DNA of 8,790 bases from Syntrophaceae bacterium. GTDB lineage: Bacteria; Desulfobacterota; Syntrophorhabdia; Syntrophorhabdales; WCHB1-27. This document shows, in pieces, positions 6,373 through 8,782 of this stretch. The stretch covers positions 2,440 to 11,229 of the forward strand of contig PLSJ01000159.1 in assembly GCA_003165115.1 (NCBI GenBank), given 5' to 3'. The notes under the pieces are model-generated. The model worked only from the letters and a program-made list of their open reading frames with translations. It did no database searches and was not told the origin of the DNA. How positions within the stretch are numbered: the stretch's first letter is position 1; each line of letters starts with the position of its first letter. Made by a program: the position numbers and the translations under genes.

Positions 6373-6631
6373 GGCGGCCGGGTTCGGGGCATCCGCTACG
6401 CGGGTCGCACGCCTTTCGCCTGTCTCTTCGGGGGCCATGCCTCACATACGAATGGTATGCCGGTGCGCAACCCCTTCATGGACCGCTTCCCGGCAAAATC
6501 CACCAAAATTTCCCCCGGCCGCGAGAAGCAGCCTACTAATTTCACAACTGAACACACACGGGCTTCTCGGACAAGTGAACGATGCCCTGTGAAAGCGAGA
6601 CGAATTTATTCCACAGAGCCTTCCTTTTCTC
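6373..6631. other. Gene-free spacer after serS with nested inverted repeats
   Basis: I find no credible gene, tRNA or U-tailed terminator in this stretch. The reading frames that cross it are antisense or shadow frames of serS. Two spaced inverted repeats interleave here. CGAGAAGC (6522-6529) pairs with GCTTCTCG (6562-6569), and TTTCACA (6540-6546) pairs with TGTGAAA (6588-6594). The order is A-B-A'-B', a pseudoknot-like topology that could equally be chance. Base composition shifts from GC-rich to AT-richer towards 6540, approaching the promoter at 6632. Confidence 0.4.
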
Positions 6632-6660
6632 TTGACACCCTGTGATGCTCGGTATAACAT
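6632..6660 (+). promoter_or_regulatory. Promoter of riboswitch unit 1
   Basis: A perfect -35 box TTGACA (6632-6637) is followed by TATAAC (6653-6658), a 5/6 match at a short 15-nt spacing, or alternatively TAACAT (6655-6660) at 17 nt. Either would start transcription around 6665-6668, only a few bases before the first aptamer. The proximity of promoter and aptamer is what supports the call. Confidence 0.55.
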
Positions 6661-6671
6661 AACAAACTGAT

Positions 6672-6764
6672 AAAGCCAAACCGCCGCGAGGACGGGACCG
6701 GGAAGCCAACGGGTCTCAGACCTGCCCGCTTTGTCCGTTGCCAGCCAGACAGCTGGGCTGCCAG
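6672..6764 (+). promoter_or_regulatory. GEMM-I (cyclic-di-GMP-I type) riboswitch aptamer 1, apparently degenerate
   Basis: The conserved skeleton of the GEMM-I class is present. AAAGCCAAACC (6672-6682) leads into a hairpin with a GCGA GNRA tetraloop (stem 6681-6685/6690-6695 with A6692 bulged). The core strand GGGACCGGGAAGCC (6694-6707) follows, then AACGGGTCT (6708-6716). The second helix pairs GTCT (6713-6716) with AGAC (6747-6750), and the closing strand is AGCTGGGCTGCC (6751-6762). Compared with the usual GGGACGNAAAGCC core there is one extra base, and G6702 sits where the ligand-intercalating adenine (A47 in the Vibrio Vc2 numbering) is expected. GGTC-TCA-GACC (6712-6722) could also form a small competing hairpin. 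The class call rests on my memory of the consensus. Binding ability is doubtful. There is no gene directly behind it. Confidence 0.75.
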
Positions 6765-6799
6765 ATAGAAAGAGTTTGCGCGCGAAGGAGCCCCTTTTT
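6755..6799 (+). terminator. Candidate intrinsic terminator / expression platform of unit 1
   Basis: GGGCTGCC (6755-6762), the 3' closing strand of aptamer 1, can pair with GGAGCCC (6787-6793) through seven base pairs with G6760 bulged. The loop is about 24 nt, and CTTTTT follows (6794-6799). Because the same strand closes the aptamer, aptamer folding and terminator formation would exclude each other, which would make ligand binding switch transcription on. The stem is modest and the loop long, so this is tentative. Confidence 0.4.
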
Positions 6800-6880
6800 C
6801 CTGATACTCCCCCCTTCCTGCCTGGTGTAGCCTCCTGATTTCGTTGCTAAAGAAAATCGGAAATGTTTTCAAGATTTCAG

Positions 6881-6909
6881 TTGACATTATATAACATATG
6901 TTTTACAAT
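6881..6909 (+). promoter_or_regulatory. Strong sigma-70 promoter of riboswitch unit 2
   Basis: TTGACA (6881-6886, 6/6) and TACAAT (6904-6909, 5/6) are separated by exactly 17 nt. Transcription would begin near 6916, about 6 nt before the second aptamer. A perfect 10-nt palindrome, AACATATGTT (6893-6902), lies wholly inside the spacer and could be a repressor or activator site. This is the best promoter in the window and is expected to drive the two secreted-protein genes. Confidence 0.75.
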
Positions 6910-6921
6910 GTCATTATCTTG

Positions 6922-7014
6922 AAAGGCCAAACCACCGGCGACGGTGGGACGGAAAGCCAACGGGTCTGGGACATGCTTCATGAAAAGCCTCCAGTAGACG
7001 GCCGGGCTGCCAGG
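6922..7014 (+). promoter_or_regulatory. GEMM-I (cyclic-di-GMP-I type) riboswitch aptamer 2
   Basis: A textbook-looking GEMM-I aptamer. It opens with AAAGGCCAAACC (6922-6933), then a six-pair hairpin (6932-6937/6942-6947) capped by a GCGA tetraloop, and the core strand GGGACGGAAAGCC (6946-6958). AACGGGTCT (6959-6967) follows, with GTCT (6964-6967) pairing to AGAC (6996-6999) and an inner GCTT/AAGC helix (6975-6978/6985-6988). The closing strand is GGCCGGGCTGCCAGG (7000-7014). In Vc2 numbering, G20 (G6926) and A47 (A6953) are retained, while the 21-46 pair is C-G instead of G-C, a compensatory change. G20 favours cyclic-di-GMP; the 3',3'-cGAMP-selective relatives carry A at that place. It lies about 95 nt before the start codon of the first secreted-protein gene and should control that operon. 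Confidence 0.88.
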
Positions 7015-7018
7015 AAGA

Positions 7019-7075
7019 ACTCTTACTCTGAAAGAAAAGGGGGGGTGAAGGGGCAAAGAGTAGTCTCTTTTTTTT
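7019..7075 (+). terminator. Candidate terminator/antiterminator expression platform of unit 2
   Basis: A hairpin AAAGAG (7055-7060), loop TAGT, CTCTTT (7065-7070) runs straight into more T (7068-7075 are all T), the arrangement of an intrinsic terminator, though the stem is AT-rich. Immediately after the aptamer, TTACTCT (7023-7029) can pair with AGAGTAG (7057-7063), and ACTCTT (7019-7024) with AAGAGT (7056-7061). Either pairing destroys the hairpin and would act as an antiterminator. A further alternative, CTGCCA (7007-7012) with TGGCAG (7075-7080), competes with closing of the aptamer. The direction of control (on or off with ligand) cannot be settled by eye. Confidence 0.45.
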
Positions 7076-7109
7076 GGCAGTCAGGTTATCAATTGTCTAA
7101 GGAGGATGG

Positions 7110-7811
7110 ATGAAAAGATTTTTGGTTCCAATTAGTTTTATGATGTTGCTCCTTCTCCCGTTTCTTGTGCCGGGTCATTCGATGGCGACTGCGTACCTGG
7201 ATTTCAGCATAGCGGGCACGGAGCAACTCTCGTGGGACGGGAACAGTAACGACGGTCTCGTCGGAAAAGTCACGGCGAGCTCGAAAGGCGCTTCCGTGTT
7301 TGCTCACGGCAGCACGGTTTCCGGAACGGAGAGCATCACGGGCGCGGTTCTCAATTTCACTACCGGCAAGTTCGTCACTCCCCCGTACCCGGATACAACA
7401 GCGGCATGGGGCTTCGCTCCAGGTGGGTCCGTGAAGATCACGGGGTCAATCGCGTCGCTGGGCCTCTCCAACGCCACGCTCTTTACGGCAACGTTCTCCG
7501 GGTCGCCGGTTGAAGTCGAAAAGGTGGAAAACGGCAGCAGCCTCTACTCCTACACTACGTTAGATTCCCTTAAGCTGACGTGGGTTAACCCTGCTCTCCT
7601 GAGCCATTATGGCTTCACGTCGGGGCTGAATACGGGCAATCTCGATATCTCCCTGAGCGCGTTCATGAACGCTACCTCCGGAAAGGCGTTCAGTCTCATC
7701 GGAGCCGGAGGCGGTGATGTCGTTTCTAATGTGCCCGTGCCGGCTTCCGTTCTGCTTCTTGCCCCAGGGCTCCTGAGCCTTGTGGGAATCAGAAAAAGGC
7801 ATTTGGGCTAG
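7110..7811 (+). CDS. Exported protein with VPxP-type (PEP-CTERM-like) sorting tail, paralogue 1
   Basis: A 233-aa secreted protein of unrecognised central family. It has a Sec signal peptide over residues 1-28 (MKR, hydrophobic 9-20, likely cut at SMA or ATA). The middle is Ser/Thr/Gly-rich, beta-strand-like and lacks cysteines (LSWDG 40-44, LNFTTG 81-86, GGSVKITGS 105-113, YGFTSGLNTGNLDIS 167-181). The tail carries V208-P-V-P-A-S213, then a hydrophobic helix (214-226) and basic R228-K-R230. Motif, transmembrane helix and basic end are the three parts of a PEP-CTERM/VPLPA-type signal that exosortase enzymes cleave in the inner membrane on the way to the cell surface. The start has GGAGG 4 nt upstream. 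The next gene begins 10 nt after its stop and encodes a paralogue with the same plan. Expression should be under riboswitch 2. A role in matrix or surface structures is inferred from the sorting class only. Confidence 0.85.
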   Translation: MKRFLVPISFMMLLLLPFLVPGHSMATAYLDFSIAGTEQLSWDGNSNDGLVGKVTASSKGASVFAHGSTVSGTESITGAVLNFTTGKFVTPPYPDTTAAWGFAPGGSVKITGSIASLGLSNATLFTATFSGSPVEVEKVENGSSLYSYTTLDSLKLTWVNPALLSHYGFTSGLNTGNLDISLSAFMNATSGKAFSLIGAGGGDVVSNVPVPASVLLLAPGLLSLVGIRKRHLG

Positions 7812-7821
7812 AGGAGAGATA

Positions 7822-8541
7822 ATGAAAAAACTTACACTCAGCATTTTCGGTTTAGTACTGGCTATTGCCCTCCTGGTCGCTGCGCCGGGTCAGTCGGCGG
7901 CCGCCCCAATGGCAATGTTCACCGCCGCCGGCTCCGGTTACCTGAGCTGGGCGGGGCCGGGCACGCCTCTTACGGGGCAGGTTGAAGTGATGGAGGTGAC
8001 GGGGTTCGACTCGGTGTTCAACGTCACCATGGACTCCCTGATCGACTCCGGCTCTCCTTATGCCGGATCGACGGCCGGGATAATGACGTTCACCACGGGC
8101 AACCAGATAGGCACAAACTTTACCTGGGCAGGCGGAGGCTCCTTTTCCATCTCCGGAGGAAGCTCCGACCTGGGGATTAGCACCGGCAGCGCCCTGTTGA
8201 AGGGCACCGGCACCCTCGGCGAGGTGACGATAAACGTGATATCGGGGGCTCCGTTTCTTGAGGTGGTGTTCAGCTCTCTGTCCGGTTCTATTCACCCCAC
8301 CATCGCAGCCGCCGCCGGTTTTGGCACGACTTCGGTCAACGGCTACATGAATATCGGCTTCAACAGTGACACGGCGCCCTCCTTTGCCGGCTTCACGTTC
8401 GGCTCGCCGAGCGACCCTAACGTCGCCATTCTAGGGAGCGGCGTAGTGGCGAACACCCCCGTTCCCGTCCCGCCTTCGGTCCTTCTCCTCGCCCCTGGTC
8501 TCCTGGGTCTCGTCGGTATGAGGAAACGGTTCAAGGCATAG
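7822..8541 (+). CDS. Exported protein with VPxP-type (PEP-CTERM-like) sorting tail, paralogue 2
   Basis: A 239-aa paralogue of the preceding protein. Its signal peptide spans residues 1-28 (MKKL, hydrophobic 7-21, cleavage at SAAA). The body is Gly/Ser/Thr-rich and shares several stations in order with its neighbour: LSWAG (41-45), IMTFTTG (87-93), GGSFSISGGSSDLGIS (105-120), GFGTTSVNGYMNIGF (166-180). No cysteine is present. The tail has P213-V-P-V-P-P-S219, a hydrophobic helix (220-232) and R234-K-R236. I chose the ATG at 7822, with GAGGAG 5 nt upstream; a more upstream in-frame ATG at 7780 would overlap the previous gene and bury the signal peptide. The pair most likely arose by tandem duplication and has diverged strongly in the middle. 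No exosortase gene is in the window, so the processing enzyme must be encoded elsewhere. Confidence 0.85.
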   Translation: MKKLTLSIFGLVLAIALLVAAPGQSAAAPMAMFTAAGSGYLSWAGPGTPLTGQVEVMEVTGFDSVFNVTMDSLIDSGSPYAGSTAGIMTFTTGNQIGTNFTWAGGGSFSISGGSSDLGISTGSALLKGTGTLGEVTINVISGAPFLEVVFSSLSGSIHPTIAAAAGFGTTSVNGYMNIGFNSDTAPSFAGFTFGSPSDPNVAILGSGVVANTPVPVPPSVLLLAPGLLGLVGMRKRFKA

Positions 8542-8561: not shown

Positions 8562-8597
8562 AAGGGCAGGGCCATAAAAGCGGCTCTGCCCTTTCTT
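8562..8597 (+). terminator. Strong hairpin terminator after the secreted-protein pair
   Basis: Twelve pairs (8562-8573 with 8582-8593, one G-U) enclose an 8-nt loop and are followed by TTTCTT. The GC-rich stem (AAGGGCAGGGCC with GGCTCTGCCCTT) 20 nt after the second stop codon marks the end of the riboswitch-controlled operon. Confidence 0.8.
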
Positions 8598-8608: not shown

Positions 8609-8782
8609 ATGCGCGATACGGTGATATGCTTCCGCACGAGTGATGATTTACGCAAAGCACTGGAAAAAGTCTCGGAGACGGACAGGAGATCGCTCTCTTC
8701 CGTGATAGAGCATATCCTCTACGATTACGTAGAGCGCAGGGAGCCGAAAGGGGTAACCGAAGAGAAGTGGGTATTCCGATGA
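8609..8782 (+). CDS. Small ribbon-helix-helix protein
   Basis: A 57-aa open frame with a GGAGAGAGG Shine-Dalgarno just ahead of its ATG. It starts with a short strand (TVICFRTS, 4-11), then a helix (DDLRKALEKVSE, 12-23), a turn, and a second helix (LSSVIEHILYDYVERRE, 29-45). This is the layout of the Arc/MetJ ribbon-helix-helix DNA-binding fold, in which two copies interlock and the strand pair (here I6, F8, R9, T10) enters the major groove. It follows the hairpin terminator directly, so it may have its own promoter or live on readthrough. Its stop codon overlaps an ATG (ATGA at 8779), suggesting a coupled partner gene beyond the edge, as is common for antitoxin or autoregulator genes. The target is unknown. 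Confidence 0.7.
   Translation: MRDTVICFRTSDDLRKALEKVSETDRRSLSSVIEHILYDYVERREPKGVTEEKWVFR

What the first reader, a model, noticed from the sequence alone, without database searches (positions are those of the whole stretch)
6632..7110. Two successive promoter-plus-GEMM-I units in front of exosortase-type surface proteins
The sequence shows two TTGACA promoters, each placed a few bases before a GEMM-I-like aptamer, about 250 nt apart and on the same strand, ahead of two VPxP-tailed secreted proteins. Tandem riboswitches usually share one transcript; here each aptamer seems to have its own promoter. Established knowledge: GEMM-I RNAs sense cyclic-di-GMP (or 3',3'-cGAMP) and that signal governs biofilm and surface traits. 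Inference: cyclic-di-GMP sets the output of exosortase-sorted surface proteins, with two inputs merging on one operon.
Basis: partly seen in the sequence, partly recalled or inferred. Interest (0 to 1): 0.75.

Follow-up and report, generated by a model that had tools for sequence, protein, structure and literature searches.

The report
Paired promoter-riboswitch cassettes before surface proteins
Two c-di-GMP riboswitch sequences, each directly behind its own predicted promoter, stand in front of two predicted surface-protein genes and belong to a family of about 31 such units in this one genome; the second likely turns the genes on when c-di-GMP is high, while the first has an altered aptamer and would mainly add a separately controlled promoter.

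Summary
Two GEMM-I aptamers (6666-6766, 6917-7015) each follow a TTGACA-17-TAnnnT promoter-like site on one strand, before two genes with PEP-CTERM-like tails. They are two of about 31 such units in the draft genome; 25 of the 31 precede a PEP-CTERM-like tail. Both carry G20, so c-di-GMP is the predicted ligand. The doublet is not a local copy: the units fall in different promoter subfamilies, and aptamer 2 is closest (90%) to units elsewhere. Unit 1 is odd: G instead of A at position 47 (2 of 72 aptamers), no gene of its own, and a predicted fold cost of 16 kcal/mol against 1.4 for unit 2. So "two c-di-GMP inputs on one operon" is only partly supported. Not in the finding: 20 of 27 unit promoters carry a palindrome GTnAnnC-NNN-GTnnnAC over the spacer and -10 (null mean 1.0, maximum 5), and 13 of 14 genome-wide places of its stricter form are at GEMM units. 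A protein repressor layered on the riboswitch is therefore likely. Unit 1 has the palindrome; unit 2 does not. Unit 2 is predicted to be an ON switch: a CCUCC inside its aptamer masks the ribosome site until the aptamer folds.

The parts
6590..6631 (+). upstream block shared with other type A units (TGAAAGCGAGACGAATTTATT...TTTTCTC)
   Evidence: side-by-side listing of units, (grouping by eye)
6632..6660 (+). predicted promoter of unit 1, TTGACA-17-TAACAT
6641..6659 (.). palindrome TGTGATGCTCGGTATAACA, predicted repressor site over spacer and -10
   Evidence: exact match to the pattern (C402:9080-9098); statistics
6666..6766 (+). GEMM-I aptamer 1, G20, G47, P2 shorter and with a bulge
6784..6790 (+). 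GAAGGAG, SD-like, 18-24 nt after aptamer 1, no ATG, GTG or TTG in the next 30 nt: likely remnant of a lost gene
   Evidence: sequence; start spacing of other units
6881..6909 (+). predicted promoter of unit 2, TTGACA-17-TACAAT, without the left half of the palindrome
6917..7015 (+). GEMM-I aptamer 2, G20, A47, 18 of 18 core pairs
6988..6992 (+). CCUCC in the distal P3 part of aptamer 2, predicted anti-SD
7071..7096 (+). leader stretch that pairs with the 3' strand of aptamer 2 (6992-7015) in the predicted OFF state
   Evidence: duplex -24.8 kcal/mol, z -3.3 to -3.7
7100..7105 (+). AGGAGG, ribosome site of gene 1
   Evidence: accessibility
7110..7811 (+). gene 1, predicted secreted protein with PEP-CTERM-like tail
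7822..8541 (+). gene 2, predicted secreted protein with PEP-CTERM-like tail
   Evidence: (longer frame from 7780; start 7822 chosen by eye)
8562..8596 (+). likely end of the operon: AAGGGCAGGGCC...GGCTCTGCCCTTTCTT hairpin
   Evidence: sequence read by eye; not listed by the scan

Best explanation
Two predicted promoters, each followed by a GEMM-I sequence and belonging to different subfamilies, lie head to tail before two genes with PEP-CTERM-like tails, and the downstream unit likely works as a c-di-GMP ON switch of translation while the upstream one likely contributes a repressor-controlled second promoter rather than a second c-di-GMP input. Unit 2 (shown: canonical aptamer residues and complete core pairing). 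Predicted: without ligand, the leader at 7071-7096 pairs with the aptamer's 3' strand and CCUCC (6988-6992) covers AGGAGG (7100-7105); c-di-GMP folds P3, withdraws both and frees the ribosome site. Unit 1 (shown: exact palindrome over spacer and -10; G47; no start codon close behind its SD-like GAAGGAG). Inferred: a dimeric repressor shared by most units of the genome blocks this promoter; the aptamer is decaying or altered; the unit lost its own gene and was left in front of unit 2.
For: Aptamers. Unit family: 25 strong matches in 3.9 Mb, 31 with weak, gapped or decayed ones, 25 of 31 before a PEP-CTERM-like tail. Palindrome: >=7 of 8 positions in 20 of 27 promoters, null mean 1.0, maximum 5 in 3000 shuffles; 14 places genome-wide, 13 at GEMM units, reversed control 0. 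Unit 1 and unit 2 are 71% identical in the aptamer core, below the mean of 73% over 25 own aptamers; unit 2 is 90% like L004 and L012. G47 in 2 of 72 aptamers. Core fold cost: unit 1 16.2 in its own register, unit 2 1.4 kcal/mol. Ribosome-site openness of unit 2: 0.17 free, 0.50 with aptamer formed; L004 0.19 to 0.72, L008 0.15 to 0.63, L012 0.17 to 0.37, L017 0.03 to 0.40. Anti-SD word in distal P3 in 7 of 27 units, null mean 1.5, maximum 6 in 2000 shuffles. A possible intermediate exists at C271: a decayed unit with a shortened PEP-CTERM gene, 550-600 nt before another unit.
Against: No transcription start, ligand binding or repressor was measured; no repressor gene was identified. The accessibility model is not uniform: of 20 units, 10 open by 0.15 or more, 2 close by that much, 8 change little; L026 had a doubtful start codon. 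In unit 2 the start codon itself becomes less accessible in the bound model (0.24 to 0.03). RF03167, with G47 in its consensus, suggests that G47 aptamers form a natural group, so unit 1 may still bind; one other G47 aptamer (L076, relative G005) stands before a PEP-CTERM gene. Fold costs in alignment register run up to 26.5 kcal/mol among the 26 aptamers printed, so unit 1 is not the only costly one. The units are related by descent, so shared letters are not independent. The palindrome is hardly enriched in the 40 relatives searched: 117 strand matches against 92 for the reversed pattern.
Confidence: 0.5

Rival explanations
1. Both aptamers are working c-di-GMP switches, so the doublet gives a steeper or two-threshold response, as proposed for other tandem c-di-GMP-I riboswitches.
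For: Both match the family and keep G20; P3 of unit 1 keeps its pairs with one G-U; 347 doublets and 12 triplets are reported (PMC9481103, passages); G47 also occurs in L076.
Against: G47 in 2 of 72, shifted P2 and a predicted fold cost of 16 kcal/mol; transcripts from promoter 2 would not contain aptamer 1.
Confidence: 0.25
2. Unit 1 is an orphan riboswitch RNA: it is transcribed from its own promoter, ends before unit 2, and acts as a free RNA or a c-di-GMP sponge, like merRNA of Bdellovibrio.
For: No gene of its own; GAAGGAGCCCCTTTTTCC at 6784-6801 can form a short hairpin with U-rich 3' side; merRNA is an example without a gene (PMC3627812, passages).
Against: The hairpin is weak and is not in the terminator list.
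Confidence: 0.15
3. The shared palindrome is only the trace of copied promoters, not a protein site.
For: Type A units share about 40 nt upstream of -35 as well.
Against: Half-sites stay while the letters between -35 and palindrome, the centre and the P3 loops differ; the palindrome occurs in units with different upstream blocks, e.g. L012, L017, L020; decayed units keep it, e.g. both at C271.
Confidence: 0.25

Closest known systems
c-di-GMP-I (GEMM-I) riboswitch, RF01051 and its variant model RF03167
   Same: consensus, core pairing, G20; unit 2 over the RF01051 cut-off
   Different: unit 1 has G47 and a shifted P2; long P3 with an anti-SD word in 7 of 27 units
Tandem c-di-GMP-I riboswitches (PMC9481103, passages; PMC4759541, listing and start of abstract only)
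   Same: two aptamers of one class in front of one operon
   Different: each has its own predicted promoter, and the copies come from different subfamilies
tfoY leader of Vibrio cholerae (PMC7371385, passages)
   Same: several promoters around one GEMM-I riboswitch; a protein regulator and c-di-GMP act on one leader
   Different: one aptamer, an OFF switch, VpsR-driven promoters whose transcripts lack the riboswitch
c-di-GMP riboswitches beside PEP-CTERM genes in Methylophaga nitratireducenticrescens GP59 (PMC12530212, passages)
   Same: four of seven c-di-GMP riboswitches flank CTERM genes
   Different: here about 31 units with a common palindrome in most of the promoters

Membership tests
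c-di-GMP-I riboswitch, unit 2 | score over the RF01051 cut-off | tested here: met
   53.7 bits, cut-off 35
c-di-GMP-I riboswitch, unit 2 | G20, A47, C92 (numbering recalled) | tested here: met
c-di-GMP-I riboswitch, unit 2 | binds c-di-GMP | not testable with these tools
   needs in-line probing
c-di-GMP-I riboswitch, unit 1 | score over the RF01051 or RF03167 cut-off | tested here: not met
   48.8 bits against 59 for RF03167; not listed for RF01051 (not all candidates scored)
c-di-GMP-I riboswitch, unit 1 | A47 and regular P2 | tested here: not met
c-di-GMP-I-GGC variant (RF03167), unit 1 | G20, G47, C92 (meaning of the name recalled) | tested here: met
   the score stays below the gathering cut-off
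3',3'-cGAMP riboswitch (GEMM-Ib) | A at position 20 (recalled; a passage of PMC7288161, gives G20A as the cGAMP-binding mutant) | tested here: not met
   both units G
PEP-CTERM protein, genes 1 and 2 | score over the curated CTERM cut-off | tested here: not met
   TIGR03370 19.7 and 14.9 bits, cut-off 25.35; motif by eye
Exosortase system | an exosortase in the genome | tested here: inconclusive
   none at E<=0.001 in a 75%-complete draft, best E 0.39; present in G005 and G028

The most novel reading that the evidence does not exclude
This genome runs a regulon of about 31 surface-protein units in which one protein repressor and one second-messenger riboswitch are stacked on the same promoters. 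At the doublet the dead upstream aptamer has become a strand sponge: in the long transcript its 3' strand captures the leader stretch that would otherwise shut unit 2, so relief of the repressor gives expression without c-di-GMP, while promoter 2 gives expression only with it.
Probability: 0.13. Interest if true: 0.8.

Novelty: new variant of a known kind. Interest (0 to 1): 0.5.

Why it matters
If right, a whole set of exosortase-type surface proteins is gated twice, by a DNA-binding protein at the start site and by c-di-GMP on the RNA, and the doublet shows how such units are joined and lose parts. It also offers a natural aptamer change at a ligand-contact position (G47) next to an unchanged sibling.

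Tried and rejected
Local tandem duplication: rejected, unit 1 and unit 2 differ more than the average pair of own units. cGAMP sensing: rejected on G20. A simple terminator switch for unit 1: GGGCU of the 3' strand can pair with AGCCC before a U run, but this is not in the minimum-energy fold and the best duplex with the following 100 nt is no better than shuffled (z -0.03). A terminator in unit 2 (7047-7070): possible, but the SD-masking fold fits several units. A common expression platform for all units: not found, mean duplex z -0.69 over 24 units. The palindrome as a trait of the whole order: little support, 117 strand matches against 92 in the reversed control over 40 relatives. A scan of named genomes for palindrome plus aptamer gave one match, in a euryarchaeal record in which cmscan found no GEMM, taken as chance. 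The protein search with gene 1 returned only the window's own protein. PEP-CTERM genes without a unit: eight more were looked at; one (C409) proved to be a decayed unit; the other seven show no TTGAC with the palindrome in the 400 nt before the start chosen by the script, but for L086, L089 and L090 that start is uncertain, so this is weak. The TCCTACATACAA box of relative G005 was not pursued. Two weak RF03167 matches (L028, L029) were dropped before counting because they lack the GEMM core and the promoter by eye.

Full report
What was checked. The window is G000:C402:2440-11229 of a 3.9-Mb draft with 521 contigs, 75.4% complete. cmscan finds two c-di-GMP-I-clan aptamers on the + strand, 6666-6766 and 6917-7015, E 2.7e-9 and 4.2e-12; both are under the gathering score of RF03167, the best model (48.8 and 58.5 against 59). 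With RF01051 unit 2 passes (53.7 bits, cut-off 35) and unit 1 is not listed. Two promoter-like sites with 17-bp spacers lie at 6632-6660 and 6881-6909; the window-wide count of such sites is not much above chance (4 against 2.4), so the support for the promoters is comparative.

The unit family. The own genome has 25 matches to RF03167 with E<=1.6e-9 and five weaker ones. Of the five, L026, L027 and L030 have the GEMM core and a promoter by eye and were kept; L028 and L029 were dropped. With three gapped or decayed units found through promoters or PEP-CTERM genes (L037 and a second one at C271; L091) there are 31. A PEP-CTERM-like tail (pattern match, judged by eye) lies downstream on the same strand within 1.5 kb in 25 of 31; the two window units share one tail, and in L006 it is in another frame than the first open frame. 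L002 and L017 are cut by contig ends (L017 ends in VPLPPA); L001, L015, L016 and L022 have none. Of 30 units tabulated, 25 have TTGAC with a -10-like hexamer 16-18 bp on, ending 4-16 nt before the aptamer. So RNA starts would lie close to the first bases of the aptamer. Among the 72 matches in 10 of 41 genomes at E<=1e-4, the window pair is the only one with two neighbours on one strand less than 600 nt apart.

The palindrome. In 27 promoters (L001 and L005 left out as having no such promoter, L024 cut off), GTnAnnC-NNN-GTnnnAC is matched at 7 or 8 of 8 fixed positions in 20 and at all 8 in 14. Shuffling the letters between -35 and the right half, with the same search for the best place, gives means of 1.0 and 0.07 and maxima of 5 and 2 in 3000 trials. 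Across the whole genome TGTNATNCNNNGTATNACA with at most one mismatch lies at 14 places; the reversed pattern at none. Thirteen of the 14 are at GEMM units, counting C271:1200 (a truncated aptamer followed by a PEP-CTERM gene); C315:1060 is the exception. Unit 1 carries an exact copy at 6641-6659. Unit 2 keeps only the right half (5 of 8). Over 40 relatives there are 117 strand matches against 92 in the control, so the enrichment (23 against 0) is this genome's; two units of G028 have GTTATGC-ACT-GTGATAC and GTTATGC-ACT-GTGTTAC at the right place. A site over spacer and -10 would block polymerase, hence a repressor is the inferred reading; no repressor gene was found.

Origin of the doublet. 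Aptamer cores of unit 1 and unit 2 are 71% identical; the mean of all pairs among the 25 own aptamers aligned is 73%; unit 2 is 90% like L004 and L012, and unit 1 is at best 78% like any other. The upstream letters of unit 1 follow the type A units and those of unit 2 the type B units (grouping by eye). The doublet is therefore a meeting of two different units. Unit 1 has an SD-like GAAGGAG 18-24 nt after the aptamer; six of ten type A units with a start begin their gene 21-37 nt after the aptamer, the other four 89-209 nt after it. No ATG, GTG or TTG follows within 30 nt. C271 shows a plausible earlier stage: a decayed unit, a shortened PEP-CTERM gene, a terminator-like hairpin, then a second unit.

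Ligand side. On an alignment of 50 aptamers (25 of 28 own matches plus 25 of 44 from relatives) position 20 is G in 47 and position 47 is A in 49, unit 1 being the exception. Over all 72 (28 own, 44 relatives) position 20 is G in 69 and position 47 is A in 70; the two with G47 are unit 1 and L076 of G005, itself a weak match (42.6 bits) before a PEP-CTERM gene. The 18-pair core has covariation far above shuffled and slid controls (88.3% of cells paired; 95 cells changed on both sides against 27.9), so the family is a real structured RNA. Unit 2 has 18 of 18 core pairs and a fold cost of 1.4 kcal/mol. Unit 1 costs 20.7 in alignment register and 16.2 in its own P2 register; the other 24 printed run from 0.8 to 26.5 in alignment register, the high ones partly from misalignment.

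Switch side. In unit 2 the aptamer's 3' strand (6992-7015) pairs with 7071-7096 (-24.8 kcal/mol, z -3.3 to -3.7), and CCUCC with UAGAC next to it pairs with GUCUA and GGAGG at the ribosome site. With the aptamer enforced, mean openness of AGGAGG rises from 0.17 to 0.50, but that of the AUG falls from 0.24 to 0.03. Across 20 units, 10 open by 0.15 or more, 2 close, 8 change little. CTCCT or CCTCC occurs in the distal P3 of 7 of 27 units, null mean 1.5, maximum 6; several of the seven are close relatives. In the long transcript from promoter 1 the site is already at 0.51 without aptamer 2 enforced; unit 1's 3' region can pair with the same leader stretch (-23.0 kcal/mol, z -2.1 to -2.4; longer piece -36.4, z -2.7 to -3.0). 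Folding 480 nt at equilibrium is weak evidence, so this is kept as the novel case.

Targets. Both proteins have signal peptides by eye and CTERM-like tails; NCBIfam gives weak matches to flocculation protein PepA (E 3.6e-5 and 0.0016, 23.7 and 18.3 bits, cut-off 80) and to VPLPA-CTERM. Gene 2 is 41% identical to the product of another decayed unit (L091) over 253 residues, and gene 1 33% over 170.

Literature. c-di-GMP riboswitches beside PEP-CTERM genes are in print for Methylophaga GP59 (PMC12530212, passages). Tandem c-di-GMP-I riboswitches are common (PMC9481103, passages) and tandem c-di-GMP riboswitches are enriched in Thermodesulfobacteriota and Deinococcota (PMC12452182, passages); the phylum of this genome was not determined. 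Promoters around one GEMM-I leader with protein control are known for tfoY (PMC7371385, passages). The listings showed no title or abstract start about a palindrome shared by riboswitch promoters; no search was made for such a palindrome as such. The meaning of the name GGC in RF03167 is recalled; the one search for it listed three papers, of which passages of one were read.

Noticed in passing
L001; G001 and G003 loci L038, L047, L053, L057, L061, L039, L048, L056: GEMM-I units of the classical type sit behind sigma-28 (FliA)-like promoters (AAGTTT ... CGATAA, with variations, by eye), in contrast to the TTGACA promoters of the PEP-CTERM units.
   Followed up: partly
G005 (L040, L050, L054, L058, L062, L067-L080): A relative in another family has 22 GEMM matches; 12 of the 19 shown precede a PEP-CTERM-like frame. 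Its promoters share another box, TCCTACATACAA (36 exact places in 3.5 Mb; 72 with up to one mismatch, reversed control 20).
   Followed up: partly
L007, from about 60 nt after the aptamer: A second, decayed GEMM-like stretch follows the first without a visible promoter between; cmscan of that contig (L095) lists only the first.
   Followed up: partly
window 7045-7113: A possible 22-codon leader frame starts with GTG inside a G-rich SD-like stretch and its TGA overlaps the ATG of gene 1; AGGAGGTGA-like words stand at a similar place in several long-leader units.
   Followed up: no
window 6914-6886, - strand: A promoter-like site (ATGACA-17-TATAAT, 11 of 12) faces the other way across promoter 2.
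   Followed up: no
L016: One GEMM unit precedes a gene that looks, by eye, like a polysaccharide export protein, so the regulon may include the matrix machinery.
   Followed up: no
window 8609-8782: A 57-residue ribbon-helix-helix-like protein (RHH_5, E 0.035, 14.3 bits, cut-off 26) follows the operon.
   Followed up: no
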